Positions 37,003 to 46,736 of a DNA stretch of 50,362 nt are shown here, in pieces. Position 1 is the first letter of the stretch. Each line of letters starts with the position of its first letter. Under the pieces are notes generated by a model. It saw nothing but the letters and a program-made list of their open reading frames with translations, made no database searches and was not told the origin of the DNA. Source of the DNA: Hahella sp. HN01. Lineage in GTDB: Bacteria; Pseudomonadota; Gammaproteobacteria; Pseudomonadales; Oleiphilaceae. The position numbers and the translations under genes were made by a program. The stretch is taken from the NCBI RefSeq assembly GCF_018986435.1, contig NZ_JAHMIN010000017.1, positions 95,093 through 145,454 on the forward strand, read 5' to 3'.

Positions 37003-37209
37003 ATGGATGTTTCTCAGTTGCAGCAGTTAAGCGATAAAATTGACCGCCTGATACAGAAGTGCAAACAGCTCGAAGCAGATAATCAGGCGCTACGCCAGCT
37101 GCAGGAAGACTGGCAAAAGGAACGCATGCAACTATTACAGAAGAACGATCTGGCCCGCTCCAAAATCGAGGCCATGATCAGTCGTTTGAAAGCTTTGGAG
37201 CAACGTTAA
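37003..37209 (+). CDS. TIGR02449-family coiled-coil protein (ZapB-like)
   Basis: 68 residues, almost entirely one coiled coil (LQQLSDKIDRLIQKCKQLEADNQALR and onward). It matches the small TIGR02449 family located immediately before zapA in Pseudomonas-like genomes. It overlaps the zapA start by one base (TAATG). A role in division-ring assembly with ZapA is suggested by its size, coiled coil and position but is not shown. Confidence 0.88.
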   Translation: MDVSQLQQLSDKIDRLIQKCKQLEADNQALRQLQEDWQKERMQLLQKNDLARSKIEAMISRLKALEQR

Positions 37210-37597: not shown

Positions 37598-37782
37598 AAG
37601 CTCCCTGAACTGCTCGCCAGTCAGATACGTCCTCGAGCCGATGAATTTTATTATTGGTTACCTCCTGCGAGTGATGTGTGCAAGTCCCTCTTGAAGGGAA
37701 AGCCTAATTCATTCCAGCGGTTACCTCCTTGAACCAAAGGGTTCAAGGGCCACGTCAGACAGCGGCTGTCTCGGGGAGTTTA
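37598..37782 (+). ncRNA. ssrS: 6S RNA
   Basis: The 297-bp gap between zapA and the cyclo-ligase gene is the known place of ssrS. The closing stem pairs CTCCC near 37601 with GGGAG at 37774-37778. The conserved block CTTGAACC-AAAGGGTTCAAGGG (about 37729-37750) matches the E. coli 6S element in the 3' half. An internal purine-rich region gives the open-promoter mimic. 6S RNA binds sigma70 RNA polymerase in stationary phase. The ends are estimated to within about 5 nt. Confidence 0.93.
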
Positions 37783-37793
37783 CTTTTTCTGCT

Positions 37794-38393
37794 ATGAATA
37801 AAGCGTCTATTCGTCGCGCCATGCGCAAAAAACGCAGAGCGCTGACACCCGCCCAACAACGCACCGCCGCCTCCGGCTTGCGAAAATCACTCAACTCAGC
37901 CATCCATCTCAGTCGCAGCGCCCGTTGGGGTCTATATCTCGCCAACGACGGGGAAATTAATCCGCTTCCAACGATTCAGCGCCTGTGGCGCAGAAAGAAA
38001 GCCTGTTACCTTCCCGTGTTACACCCGCTTTACCACAACCGGTTATGGTTCGTTCGGTATCAGCCCGGCGCCAGGCTCAAGCCCAATAAGTACGGCATTC
38101 CTGAACCTGTGCTGCGGGGAGCGAAAAGAGTTCCACCCTGGTCATTGGATGTGGTGTGCTTTCCATTAGTCGCTTTTGATAAGCAGGGGAACCGATTGGG
38201 AATGGGCGGGGGTTATTACGATCGCACCTTTGCTGACCGCCGAGTCGTTATCAAGAGACCGAAATTGATTGGGTTCGCTCATCACTTCCAGCAACTTCCA
38301 GAACTACCCCACGAGCCCTGGGATATTCCACTGTCCGCCGTCGCTACGGATCAGCAGTTGCACCGCTTCAGAAACAAAAAAGCCCTGCGTTAA
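37794..38393 (+). CDS. ygfA: 5-formyltetrahydrofolate cyclo-ligase
   Basis: 199 residues. RRAMRKKRRALTPAQQ at the N terminus, YKPVLHP-like YLPVLHPLYHNRLWFVRY in the core, and the substrate loop DKQGNRLGMGGGYYDRTF identify the MTHFS family. It converts 5-formyl-THF to 5,10-methenyl-THF using ATP. It begins 12 bp after the 6S RNA and is probably made from the same primary transcript, as in E. coli. The stop lies in a bidirectional terminator. Confidence 0.94.
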   Translation: MNKASIRRAMRKKRRALTPAQQRTAASGLRKSLNSAIHLSRSARWGLYLANDGEINPLPTIQRLWRRKKACYLPVLHPLYHNRLWFVRYQPGARLKPNKYGIPEPVLRGAKRVPPWSLDVVCFPLVAFDKQGNRLGMGGGYYDRTFADRRVVIKRPKLIGFAHHFQQLPELPHEPWDIPLSAVATDQQLHRFRNKKALR

Positions 38394-38405
38394 CAGGGCT
38401 TTTTT
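38376..38405. terminator. bidirectional terminator
   Basis: AAAAAAGCCCTG-CGTTAA-CAGGGCTTTTTT is a perfect stem with T-runs in both orientations. It can end the plus-strand cyclo-ligase message, whose stop is in the loop, and the minus-strand small gene at 38428-38571. Confidence 0.85.
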
Positions 38406-38427
38406 CGAATCGTCAGGAAGACAGGGA

Positions 38428-38571
38428 CTAATTAACGTCCTCGCCAGCGACAGAAACATATGTGGGCGACGTACGTGCTTCCTTGTGGCCAAAGGTTGTG
38501 AAGCCGCTGACGACCAACCCAAGGCAAAATACGATCACAAGCGTAAGCATGACGTCAGGCTTGCGCTTCAT
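38428..38571 (-). CDS. small single-pass membrane protein (47 aa), uncharacterised
   Basis: 47 codons, too short for most automated calls. The start is ATG at 38571 with a GGGGG site just upstream (38576-38580). The protein starts with basic MKRKPD, then one hydrophobic helix (about residues 8-24, VMLTLVIVFCLGLVVSG), then a polar tail ending VAGEDVN, probably outside the cytoplasm. It has a plausible promoter with TATAAT (38645-38650), an FNR-type box (38672-38685) and a shared terminator downstream. I do not recognise a family. The full set of expression signals makes a real gene likely. Confidence 0.7.
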   Translation of the reverse strand: MKRKPDVMLTLVIVFCLGLVVSGFTTFGHKEARTSPTYVSVAGEDVN

Positions 38572-38644
38572 GCATCCCCCTAATTTTCATTGGCGTTTTT
38601 TTAATTTTATAAATCAGACAAATAGGTAATTGTCTTAACTTGAA

Positions 38645-38650
38645 ATTATA
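38645..38650 (-). promoter_or_regulatory. -10 element for the small membrane protein
   Basis: TATAAT on the minus strand. The predicted start is near 38638, giving a leader of about 67 nt. The -35 region is poor, as is common for activator-dependent promoters. Confidence 0.55.
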
Positions 38651-38671
38651 GAAAAGTATTGTAACTCCTGC

Positions 38672-38685
38672 CTGATTTAAATCAA
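38672..38685 (-). promoter_or_regulatory. FNR/Anr box
   Basis: TTGATTTAAATCAG on the minus strand matches the consensus TTGAT-N4-ATCAA at 9 of 10 positions. Its centre is about 41 bp upstream of the start predicted from the TATAAT, which is the standard class II FNR activation position. Confidence 0.6.
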
Positions 38686-38742: not shown

Positions 38743-40260
38743 TCAGGCACCTAGAAACAGTTTATAGGCAGGATTATTGGTCTCCTCCCAATACCGGAAA
38801 CCAACGGTATCCAGCATTTTCCGGAACTCCGCCATTTCGTCATCGTTCACCTGCGCGCCCATTAAAACACGACTATAAGCGGCGCCATGATTACGATAAT
38901 GAAACATGGTGATATTCCAGCGAGCGCCAAAAGCCATGAGGAACTTCATCAACGCCCCGGGACGCTCCGGAAATTCAAAACGGAAAACCTTCTCGTTGGT
39001 TAACGCTGGCGAATGCCCTCCCACCATGTGGCGGATGTGCATTTTGGCGACTTCGTTATCAGTGAGATCAAGCACCGAGTAACCTTTTTCCTCCAGTGCG
39101 CCAACCAACTCTTTGCGCTCTTCCAGACCAGAGCTGATCTGAACGCCAACAAAGATCTGCGCTTCCGTCGCATCACAATAACGGTAGTTAAACTCGGTGA
39201 TATTACGGCGACTTAACGCCTGGATGAAACGCTTGTAACTACCTGGGCGCTCTGGAATTCTCACCGCAAGAATCGCCTCGCGCTCCTCACCGACTTCAGT
39301 GCGCTCAGTGATATAACCCAGGCGGTCGAAGTTCATGTTCGCGCCGCTTACAATGGCTATCAGGTTTTCGTCCTGAATTTTTTCTCTCGCCACGTACTTC
39401 TTCAGACCGGCAATCGCCAATGCGCCAGCTGGCTCAGCGATAGAGCGGGTATCCTCAAAGACATCTTTAATGCCTGCGCAGATTTCGTCTGTGGAGACCA
39501 GAACGACTTCATCCACATACTGACGACACACTTCCCATGGAGCCTTACCGATCTGTTTGACGGCGACGCCATCGGCGAAGATGCCGACTTCCGGCAAGGT
39601 CACCCGTTTGCCTGCCTTCAATGCAGCATGGAGGCAGTTGGAGTCTTCCGGTTCTACGCCTATGACTTTGACATCCGGACGCAAGTACTTGATGTAGGCA
39701 GCGACGCCCGCGATCAAACCCCCGCCGCCAACGGGAACGAACACAGCATGAATAGGAGACGTGTGTTGCCACATAATCTCCATGCCCACCGTGCCCTGAC
39801 CCGCAATCACCTCTTCGTCGTCGTAAGGAGGTATATAGATGTAGCCTTTTTCTTTGACCAGCGTTTGCGCATGCGCCGCCGCTTCGTCAAAGGCGTCCCC
39901 TTTCAGCACCACTTTCGCGCCCTTCGCCCGCACGGAATTCACTTTGATTTCCGGCGTGGTTTGCGGCATCACGATAGTTGCTTTGACGCCCAACTTTTGC
40001 GCCGCCAGCGCCAGCCCTTGGGCGTGGTTGCCCGCAGACGCAGCAATCACGCCTTTTTCTTTAGCAATCGCGGAAAGTTGCGCCAGCTTGTTATAAGCGC
40101 CGCGTAACTTGAAAGAGAAAACAGGCTGCAGGTCCTCACGCTTCAATAGAATATGATTATTGAACCTGTGGCTCAGCAGGTGGGCCGACTCCAAAGGAGA
40201 CTCTATCGCAACATCATAGACTTTGGCGTCCAGGATCTTTTTTATATATCGGTGGGGCAT
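38743..40260 (-). CDS. ilvA: threonine ammonia-lyase, biosynthetic
   Basis: 505 residues. The PLP lysine is K51 in FSFKLRGAYNKL, the glycine-rich PLP phosphate loop is PVGGGGLIAG, and ASAGNHAQGLA is conserved. The C-terminal third contains two ACT-like regulatory domains (around EREAILAVRIPERPGSYKRF and TNEKVFRFEFPERPGALMKF), so isoleucine feedback inhibition is expected. It makes 2-oxobutanoate from threonine at the start of isoleucine synthesis. It is divergent from rpiA, the same pairing as in Pseudomonas. Confidence 0.96.
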   Translation of the reverse strand: MPHRYIKKILDAKVYDVAIESPLESAHLLSHRFNNHILLKREDLQPVFSFKLRGAYNKLAQLSAIAKEKGVIAASAGNHAQGLALAAQKLGVKATIVMPQTTPEIKVNSVRAKGAKVVLKGDAFDEAAAHAQTLVKEKGYIYIPPYDDEEVIAGQGTVGMEIMWQHTSPIHAVFVPVGGGGLIAGVAAYIKYLRPDVKVIGVEPEDSNCLHAALKAGKRVTLPEVGIFADGVAVKQIGKAPWEVCRQYVDEVVLVSTDEICAGIKDVFEDTRSIAEPAGALAIAGLKKYVAREKIQDENLIAIVSGANMNFDRLGYITERTEVGEEREAILAVRIPERPGSYKRFIQALSRRNITEFNYRYCDATEAQIFVGVQISSGLEERKELVGALEEKGYSVLDLTDNEVAKMHIRHMVGGHSPALTNEKVFRFEFPERPGALMKFLMAFGARWNITMFHYRNHGAAYSRVLMGAQVNDDEMAEFRKMLDTVGFRYWEETNNPAYKLFLGA

Positions 40261-41059: not shown

Positions 41060-41068
41060 TTGAGAATC

Positions 41069-44710: not shown

Positions 44711-45643
44711 GTGTCCGAAGAGAAACGCGATCTGACCTATTCAGACTTTATTCACCCCCGTTATTGGCCAACCTGGCTTGGGATCGTTTTACTATGGCTG
44801 ATCGCCCATACGCCGTTGGCCCTGCAACGCGCCCTGGGGATTCTGATGGGCCGCGCCGCCTACTATTTTTTGCCCAAGCGACGCAAAATCGCTGAGGTTA
44901 ATATTAATCTTTGCTTTCCAGAACTTGCCTCCTCGCAGAGACAAGCTTTGGTAAAGTCCGCCTTTGACAACAACGCCATCGGCTATTTCGAGGCCGCCTC
45001 CGCCTGGTTTACTGGAAAAGAACGCTTTCGCGCCATTACCAAGGCGCACGGTCTGGAAAACCTGAAAGCGGCGCAGGCGAAAGGCAAAGGCGTTATTCTA
45101 TTAGGCGGCCACTTCACGACGCTGGATCTTGGCGGCGCATTATTTGATATTTATTCCAGCGCAGCCAGCATGCAACGGGACCACGATAATCCCCTGTTCA
45201 ACATGGTGATGACCCGCGCCCGTAGAAAATTTTGCCATCCCGTATTGAGCAAAGACGACTTGCGCGGCCTTATCCGCCATCTAAGGTCAGGTGGAACAAT
45301 CTGGTATGCCACAGATCAGGATTATGGTCGTCGCAGCAGCGTATTCGCGCCATTTTTTAATGTGCCGGCGGCAACGATCACCACAACATCACGCATCGCA
45401 CAAAAAACCGGTGCGCCCGTCGTCCCCTTTAGTCACTTCCGTAACGAAAACGGCGGCTACGACGTCTACTTCGAGCCCGCGCTTTCTGACTACCCATCCG
45501 GCGACGACCTTGCAGACGCCACCGCCACGAATCTGGCGATAGAAAACGCCATCCGCCGCTATCCCGCCCAATACCTGTGGATGCATCGGCGGTTTAAGAC
45601 TGAGGAGAACAGGGAGAATCATTCGCATTATGGCGGCAAGTAA
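44711..45643 (+). CDS. LpxL/LpxM-family lipid A acyltransferase
   Basis: 310 residues with a GTG start. After a membrane anchor (WLGIVLLWLIAHTPLALQRAL) it carries the acyltransferase HX4D motif in GGHFTTLD (H134, D139), YATDQDYGRRSSVFAPFF and RYPAQYLWMHRRFK. These enzymes add secondary acyl chains to Kdo2-lipid IVA at the inner membrane. Whether it is the lauroyl (LpxL) or myristoyl (LpxM) type is not clear. It overlaps the next gene by 14 bases, so they are coupled. Confidence 0.9.
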   Translation: MSEEKRDLTYSDFIHPRYWPTWLGIVLLWLIAHTPLALQRALGILMGRAAYYFLPKRRKIAEVNINLCFPELASSQRQALVKSAFDNNAIGYFEAASAWFTGKERFRAITKAHGLENLKAAQAKGKGVILLGGHFTTLDLGGALFDIYSSAASMQRDHDNPLFNMVMTRARRKFCHPVLSKDDLRGLIRHLRSGGTIWYATDQDYGRRSSVFAPFFNVPAATITTTSRIAQKTGAPVVPFSHFRNENGGYDVYFEPALSDYPSGDDLADATATNLAIENAIRRYPAQYLWMHRRFKTEENRENHSHYGGK

Positions 45644-46736
45644 TATCATTCCAAGCCTCCTACTGAAGGATGCGGTGGACTTTTCCGAAATCAAGCGAGT
45701 TCTTGTCATTAAACTTCGCCACCACGGTGACGTCCTGCTGAGCTCTCCTGTTTTTACCGCGTTAAAAGCACAATATCCTCATCTTGAGGTGGACGGTCTG
45801 GTATACAAAGATACTCAGGACATGTTGAGTCTTCACCCAGCAATATCGCAACTGCACTTGATTGATAGGGGATGGAAAAAGCTGGGCGTTCGACGCCAAC
45901 TTGAAGCGGAGTGGGGACTGATTAGTCAGCTCAAGCAACGTCAGTACGATTTGGTCATTCACCTAACTGAACATTGGCGCGGCATGTTGTTGACTCGACT
46001 GCTTAAGCCCAGGTTGTCCGTCTGTCAGATCTACGCCCGACGTCCAGGAAAACTTTGGAAAAAGACATTCACTCATCACTATCCTGTAAACGCAAAACAT
46101 CGCCATACCGTTGAGAAACACCTCGACGCGCTACGCAGAATAGGCCTGTATCCAAGTGATGAAGAACGACGCCTGACCGCTGTAGCAGGCGATTCAGCAG
46201 AACTCGCAGTCCTTGATCGCTTGGCTGAGCAGGGTGCGTCAGCAGGGGAATACATCCACATACACCCTACCTCCCGCTGGCTTTTTAAAAGTTGGGATGT
46301 AGATAAAATGGCTTCCCTAATTAACCGTTTACAGGAAAAGGGACATACCATTGTTCTTAGCGCAGCCCCGAGCGGGGATGAAATGCGTATGATGGAGGAT
46401 ATTCTGGAGCGCCTGGTTCATCCCGTCATCAACTTCAGCGGGTCTCTGACGCTCAAAGAGTTGATCGCCCTGATACAGCATGCAAAGTTGTTCATCGGCG
46501 TAGACTCCGTTCCGATGCACATCGCTTCAGCAACTCAAACTCCGTGTGTAGCTCTATTTGGTCCCAGCAACGAGCGAGAGTGGTCTCCCTGGCTAAACAA
46601 ACACGTAATTCTATCGTCAAATCATCCTTGCCGCCCATGCGACCTTGCCGGATGCGGCGATGGCTGGCGAAGTGAATGTCTGTCACAGATACAGGTTGAG
46701 CAAGCTCTGAATGCCGTGGAGCGCCTGACGTCATGA
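45630..46736 (+). CDS. waaQ: lipopolysaccharide heptosyltransferase III-like (GT9)
   Basis: 368 residues of glycosyltransferase family 9. RVLVIKLRHHGDVLLSSPVFTAL and YKDTQDMLSLHPAISQLHLIDRGWKK closely follow E. coli WaaQ. The C-terminal nucleotide-sugar site shows HPTSRWLFKSW and FIGVDSVPMHIASAT, then LFGPSNEREWSPW. WaaQ adds the branching third heptose of the inner core from ADP-heptose. The start overlaps the acyltransferase end, and the stop overlaps the next gene (ATGA). Confidence 0.87.
   Translation: MAASNIIPSLLLKDAVDFSEIKRVLVIKLRHHGDVLLSSPVFTALKAQYPHLEVDGLVYKDTQDMLSLHPAISQLHLIDRGWKKLGVRRQLEAEWGLISQLKQRQYDLVIHLTEHWRGMLLTRLLKPRLSVCQIYARRPGKLWKKTFTHHYPVNAKHRHTVEKHLDALRRIGLYPSDEERRLTAVAGDSAELAVLDRLAEQGASAGEYIHIHPTSRWLFKSWDVDKMASLINRLQEKGHTIVLSAAPSGDEMRMMEDILERLVHPVINFSGSLTLKELIALIQHAKLFIGVDSVPMHIASATQTPCVALFGPSNEREWSPWLNKHVILSSNHPCRPCDLAGCGDGWRSECLSQIQVEQALNAVERLTS

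What the first reader, a model, noticed from the sequence alone, without database searches (positions are those of the whole stretch)
38428..38685. Overlooked 47-aa membrane protein under an FNR/Anr-type promoter
The gap between the cyclo-ligase gene and ilvA encodes a basic-helix-tail small protein with ribosome binding site, TATAAT, a 9/10 FNR box centred near -41 and a shared bidirectional terminator. All signals line up in the same direction and at proper distances. Small single-pass proteins switched on at low oxygen often tune respiratory oxidases or transporters, so this is a good candidate for a new regulator of that kind.
Basis: partly seen in the sequence, partly recalled or inferred. 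Interest (0 to 1): 0.7.

Follow-up and report, generated by a model that had tools for sequence, protein, structure and literature searches.

The report
Conserved tiny membrane protein beside fau
The window holds a real 47-residue membrane protein with relatives across many Pseudomonas-like bacteria and no function that I could find, and the low-oxygen switch in front of it looks like a local addition in a few Hahella genomes rather than a clue to what the protein does.

Summary
In detail: a 47-codon minus-strand ORF (38571-38428) with AGGGGG, a perfect TATAAT, a 9/10 FNR/Anr box centred at about -40.5 of the assumed start, and a terminator shared with fau. It is a genuine gene: intact in 7 of 7 genomes of the genus, matched in 110 of 293 genomes of the order, and convergent with fau (5-formyltetrahydrofolate cyclo-ligase) in 49 of 52 distinct unnamed loci and 80 of 80 named loci, P. 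aeruginosa PA7 included. The shared core is M-[K/N]-R-K-P-D, then one helix with F15, G18, [S/T]22, G23; the tail is variable. Nothing in Pfam, NCBIfam or the PDB reached a cut-off.

A 9/10 box occurs in 4 of 52 distinct upstream regions, all from close Hahella genomes, in 0 of 80 named loci and in 2 of 21 more distant ones. So oxygen control is at best local, and nothing ties the family to oxidases or transporters. In the four close genomes the leader and even the ORF's silent sites are nearly frozen.

Most likely a small bitopic inner-membrane protein that docks on an unknown membrane partner. Interest moderate.

The parts
38428..38571 (-). 47-aa small membrane protein ORF (stop codon included)
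   Evidence: homologues without inner stops in 7 of 7 genomes of the genus
38576..38581 (-). AGGGGG ribosome-binding-site-like stretch
   Evidence: a G-rich stretch is seen upstream of many homologues (not counted)
38645..38650 (-). -10 element TATAAT (start assumed near 38638)
38672..38685 (-). FNR/Anr-type box TTGATTTAAATCAG (9/10), centre about -40.5
   Evidence: among 52 distinct upstream regions only in 4 close Hahella genomes
38572..38685 (-). 114-nt promoter and leader, nearly invariant among four close Hahella genomes (1 variable column, an indel)
38376..38405 (.). terminator-like hairpin between convergent fau and the small ORF; overlaps the fau stop codon
   Evidence: not listed by the scan
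37794..38393 (+). fau, 5-formyltetrahydrofolate cyclo-ligase, the usual convergent neighbour
   Evidence: TIGR02727 over cut-off
38743..40260 (-). ilvA, threonine ammonia-lyase, tandem upstream neighbour
   Evidence: TIGR01124 over cut-off; tandem in 35 of 52 distinct loci, found near only 3 of 80 named loci

Best explanation
The ORF encodes a member of an old, uncharacterised family of very small single-pass membrane proteins. Shown: conserved frame, conserved RKPD cap and helix, variable tail, usual place next to fau. Inferred: the basic end stays in the cytoplasm, the helix (about residues 5-29) crosses the inner membrane, and the 18-residue tail lies in the periplasm. Inferred: the protein works by docking its helix, through the F15-G18-[S/T]22/G23 face, on a larger inner-membrane protein that it stabilises or tunes; the partner is unknown. 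In most lineages no FNR box is seen, so expression there is probably not under Anr; in the Hahella clade of the window an Anr-dependent class II promoter has probably been added. fau is a positional neighbour transcribed towards it, not an operon partner.
For: Homologues in 36 of 58 genomes, the window's own included, 110 of 293 genomes of the order and 31 of 369 of the class sample with a wider profile, 27 of them outside the order; at least 7 of those 27 are longer proteins sharing only the start. P5, D6, F15, G18 invariant among 23 members gathered without a pattern. Residues 1-26 much better conserved than the tail in 112 distinct members (partly selected by pattern). Coding selection: in the four close genomes 0 of 96 first/second positions vary and the three changes are silent; in most wider pairs amino-acid change is below 4-fold change, e.g. 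6 of 47 against 11 of 19 for L013/L016. Convergent fau in 49 of 52 and 80 of 80 loci. AlphaFold2, single sequence: one helix 5-29, residues 11-20 at mean pLDDT 91, whole chain 68. Median net charge +2 in residues 1-6 and 0 after residue 28, which by the positive-inside rule (recalled) gives N-in/C-out.
Against: No partner, phenotype or expression data. The docking face is inferred from conservation only, and F15 is often replaced beyond the order. In two Hahella pairs (L003/L007, L003/L008) amino-acid change is not below 4-fold change, on 16 and 11 sites. Two of 112 short members have a strict A-x-A after the helix, and longer proteins elsewhere carry a similar start that ends like a signal peptide. 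Nearly frozen silent sites in four Hahella genomes are not explained by protein selection alone.
Confidence: 0.55

Rival explanations
1. One reading: an Anr-switched single-pass protein that adjusts a terminal oxidase or transporter at low oxygen, in the manner of CydX or CcoM.
For: 9/10 box at about -40.5, perfect TATAAT, poor -35, unchanged in four genomes; Fnr/Anr gene present. Two distant members outside the order also have a 9/10 box, at -147 and -155 of the match start.
Against: Box in 4 of 52 distinct upstream regions, 0 of 80 named loci and 2 of 21 further loci, neither of the two near fau; tested neighbours are not respiratory; the family profile matches no solved oxidase subunit at E up to 10. 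The whole leader is invariant, so conservation cannot be credited to the box.
Confidence: 0.15
2. The hydrophobic stretch is a cleavable signal peptide and the tail is a short secreted peptide.
For: Some members outside the order show QA or A-x-A-like ends, and longer proteins with a similar start exist.
Against: The tail is the least conserved part and the cap and helix the most, the reverse of what I expect of a secreted effector; strict A-x-A in 2 of 112 members; an invariant Asp in the n-region is unusual (recalled).
Confidence: 0.12
3. In the Hahella clade the transcript itself also acts as an RNA (dual-function small RNA), which would account for frozen silent sites and leader.
For: Leader 1 of 114 columns variable; ORF 4-fold 2 of 28 variable against 114 of 218 (ilvA) and 42 of 102 (fau); the stretch that holds 6S RNA is similarly low, 6 of 296. 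Fold z -2.55. In 5 of 22 other informative pairs that I picked, silent change in the ORF is also under half that of its neighbours.
Against: The fold includes the terminator; the only Rfam match over the ORF strand is a sub-threshold one on the terminator; in 4 of the 22 pairs silent change in the ORF exceeds that of both neighbours, and the rest lie between; the small TIGR02449 gene is about as frozen (2 of 20), so strong expression or codon choice could be the cause.
Confidence: 0.12

Closest known systems
MgtR (Salmonella peptide that promotes MgtC degradation by FtsH; PMC6813294, passages)
   Same: Tiny single-pass protein starting MNR-x-PD (alignment); weak matches: NCBIfam best E 0.036, 3 of 23 members; PDB 2mc7, E 1
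   Different: Far below any cut-off; not in an mgtC operon; of the Ala-coil positions A10, S17, A24 position 17 is Leu in 88 of 112 members and position 24 mostly Tyr or Phe; has an extra tail
CydX / CcoM small oxidase subunits (recalled; CcoM as a 36-aa subunit in the abstract start of PMC10433244)
   Same: Size class and single helix; oxygen-type promoter in this clade
   Different: No match in the PDB profile search, no oxidase among the tested neighbours, no box in most relatives
MgrB-like small regulators of membrane sensor kinases (47 aa, from the abstract start of PMC8404706 in the listing)
   Same: Small bitopic protein of the same length
   Different: No MgrB family among the hits in Pfam or NCBIfam at E up to 1

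Membership tests
RKPD small membrane protein family next to fau (my label, unnamed) | M-x-R-K-P-D cap followed by one helix with F15, G18, G23 | tested here: met
   (F15 holds inside the order, often replaced outside)
RKPD small membrane protein family next to fau (my label, unnamed) | Convergent with fau | tested here: met
   window coordinates; 49 of 52, 80 of 80; fau within the stretch in 11 of 20 loci outside the order
FNR/Anr regulon | Box close to TTGAT-N4-ATCAA at about -41.5 of a promoter with a good -10 | tested here: met
   (start assumed from the -10)
FNR/Anr regulon | Fnr/Anr regulator encoded in the genome | tested here: met
   NF008365 260.5 bits, cut-off 228
FNR/Anr regulon | Site kept in orthologues beyond the nearest species | tested here: not met
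   4 of 52, 0 of 80, 2 of 21 distant loci at other distances
FNR/Anr regulon | Anr-dependent transcription at low oxygen | not testable with these tools
   needs expression data
MgtR | Family model score over cut-off | tested here: not met
   best E 0.036
MgtR | Ala-coil small residues at 10, 17, 24 | tested here: not met
   position 17 Leu in 88 of 112, position 24 Tyr 80 and Phe 18 of 112
CydX/CcoM-type oxidase subunit | Sequence match to a solved oxidase small subunit | tested here: not met
   two weak hits only, PsbI and MgtR
CydX/CcoM-type oxidase subunit | Physical association with an oxidase | not testable with these tools
   needs pull-down
Signal peptide / secreted peptide | A-x-A cleavage motif after the hydrophobic stretch | tested here: not met
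   strict motif in 2 of 112 members, not in the window protein; rough motif test, no trained predictor available

The most novel reading that the evidence does not exclude
A general small subunit or regulator of a conserved gammaproteobacterial inner-membrane machine, absent from the named family collections searched, whose RKPD-plus-helix module is also reused as the start of longer proteins in other gammaproteobacteria.
Probability: 0.25. Interest if true: 0.65.

Novelty: new member of a known kind. Interest (0 to 1): 0.42.

Why it matters
A protein of about 40-60 residues kept beside fau in Pseudomonas, Azotobacter, Stutzerimonas and Hahella very probably does something useful, yet my scans gave it no family name in Pfam or NCBIfam. 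Its fixed place makes it easy to find and delete in harmless laboratory species.

Tried and rejected
Tried without result: Pfam and NCBIfam scans of the window protein, of 23 members and of seven wider members: nothing over a cut-off; the nearest was DUF3693 for one of the seven (E 0.0021, 18 bits, 21 needed). PDB profile search: only PsbI (E 0.029) and MgtR (E 1), taken as composition matches. Plasmid and phage collections: no match to one Pseudomonas member. Papers: the string MKRKPD (0 papers); cyclo-ligase + Pseudomonas + small membrane protein (0 papers); PA5229 (2 papers, passages of both read); PA5228 (6 papers, passages of 2 read): no small ORF mentioned in those passages. That PA5229 is the next gene after fau in PAO1 is recalled. 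Listings only: apart from the papers named here and PMC6813294. PMC6588701 on the Anr regulon (passages) has no word starting PA522 in its main text; its supplements were not seen.

Rejected: that the ORF is a chance frame; that the sub-threshold CRISPR-repeat hit at 38371-38406 is real (it lies on the terminator hairpin); that recent recombination explains the frozen stretch (it would have to homogenise all four genomes at one spot; inference, not modelled).

Caveats: alignment A1 used 23 of the 30 loci (left out: three identical to the window protein, two near-duplicates, L014 with unclear start, and L029, whose strand I misread and corrected). The 80 loci were found by peptide patterns and are the best 80 of 429; the 112-member set was partly gathered by a regular expression; invariance there is partly built in. 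Five matches contain a stop inside the matched stretch; I looked at one (L046), where it is the gene's own end. One ORF (45630-46736) was dropped from the 4-fold comparison because only one sister stretch held it.

Full report
What is there. The minus strand between fau and ilvA carries a 47-codon ORF, 38571 to 38428. Upstream lie AGGGGG (38576-38581), TATAAT (38645-38650) and TTGATTTAAATCAG (38672-38685), a 9/10 match to the FNR/Anr box. If transcription starts near 38638 the box centre is at -40.5; the best -35 hexamer at 15-19 nt spacing matches TTGACA in 3 of 6. This is the layout of a class II activator-dependent promoter (recalled). Shuffles of the gap give a 9/10 box in 1.3% of cases and box plus a 5/6 -10 at the right distance in 0.085%. 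Against that, boxes are frequent in this genome (373 against 74 for the reversed control; 6 against 1.5 expected in the window), and the plain scan lists another promoter that overlaps the box, at chance level. A hairpin at 38376-38405 separates the gene from convergent fau. The genus is Hahella: G006 and G004, which the tool places in the window's genus, have contigs of the same lengths as Hahella ganghwensis and Hahella sp. CCB-MM4 in the named collection.

Is it a gene. Yes. A protein search finds it in 36 of 58 genomes: 7 of 7 of the genus, 25 of 30 others of the family and 4 of 21 others of the order. A profile finds it in 110 of 293 genomes of the order. In the class sample one profile finds 24 of 369, 20 of them outside the order, and a wider one 31 of 369, 27 outside; at least 7 of these 27 are longer proteins that share only the start. 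In a phylum sample the wider profile finds 15 of 200, all 15 inside the order. The profiles differ in reach, so a miss is not proof of absence. Members share M-[K/N]-R-K-P-D, a helix with F15, G18, [S/T]22 and G23, and a tail of no fixed sequence. In a 19-member alignment that reaches beyond the order P5 and D6 are invariant and G18 nearly so, while F15 is often replaced.

Where it sits. In 80 of 80 named loci, mostly Pseudomonas and relatives and including P. aeruginosa PA7, fau is convergent and adjacent. Outside the order fau is within the stretch in 11 of 20 loci. The other neighbour changes: ilvA in tandem in 35 of 52 and a divergent EVE-domain gene in 12 of 52, EVE in 74 of 80 and ilvA in 3 of 80 named loci (EVE by Pfam). 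So the lasting link is to the side of fau. Convergent genes are not an operon, so I infer no folate role.

The oxygen claim. A box of 9/10 or better within 250 nt upstream exists in 4 of 52 distinct upstream regions, the window's genome and its three nearest relatives, and in 0 of 80 named loci, two of which repeat genomes already counted. The other three genomes of the genus lack it. Among 21 further loci, 20 of them outside the order, two have a 9/10 box within 270 nt, at -147 (L068) and -155 (L085) of the match start; neither has fau nearby. Scattered hits of that kind are what a frequent motif would give, but I cannot exclude separate gains of control. The regulator gene is present, so local Anr control in the window's clade is plausible; I put it at about one in two.

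An unexpected point. Across the four close Hahella genomes, which differ pairwise at 5-8% of columns over this 3.1-kb stretch, the 114-nt leader has one variable column, an indel, and the ORF has three variable sites, all silent. Its 4-fold sites vary at 2 of 28; among 19 genes scored over the 20-kb neighbourhood only the small TIGR02449 gene is as low (2 of 20), the other 17 lying between 24% and 57% (most gene labels in that script are recalled, those tested are, where the ZapA match is below its cut-off). The stretch that holds 6S RNA varies at 6 of 296 columns. In other clades the picture is mixed: of 22 further informative pairs that I picked, silent change in the small gene is under half that of its neighbours in 5, above both in 4 and in between in 13. 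A functional RNA, strong codon choice, or both could explain the frozen stretch; I cannot tell them apart.

How it probably works. The positive start, the helix (AlphaFold2 residues 5-29, residues 11-20 at mean pLDDT 91, whole chain 68, single sequence) and the neutral tail suggest an N-in/C-out bitopic protein. A conserved helix with a divergent tail is what I expect of a protein that acts by helix packing in the membrane. The partner is unknown. MgtR offers the nearest model of action, but the test for membership fails on score and on the Ala-coil positions (PMC6813294, passages). An oxidase-subunit reading has no support beyond the promoter.

Known or new. I found no family name for it in Pfam or NCBIfam, no solved relative, and no account in the paper searches named in Tried and rejected, which cover open-licence full texts only and were read in passages. 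Individual copies may well be annotated as hypothetical proteins. I class it as a new, widely conserved member of the known kind 'small bitopic membrane protein'.

Noticed in passing
window 37003-37209: The TIGR02449 small gene before the zapA-like gene is about as frozen at silent sites (2 of 20) as the small membrane protein gene (2 of 28) among four Hahella genomes.
   Followed up: partly
window 37599-37781: 6S RNA between the zapA-like gene and fau (Rfam RF00013, 107 bits).
   Followed up: yes
L080 (near 292), L205, L208, L210, L214, L215 (around 1500, as oriented): Proteins of 114-157 aa in other gammaproteobacteria share the RKPD-plus-helix start, often with a signal-peptide-like end, and all six finish in Trp; no Pfam or NCBIfam hit at E up to 0.1. 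Three genomes gave both a short and a second match in a longer frame.
   Followed up: partly
window 38371-38406: A sub-threshold CRISPR-repeat match on the minus strand lies on the terminator hairpin.
   Followed up: yes
G000 contig C65, 39697-39710: A perfect FNR box lies about 1.4 kb before the Fnr/Anr gene match at 41067.
   Followed up: no
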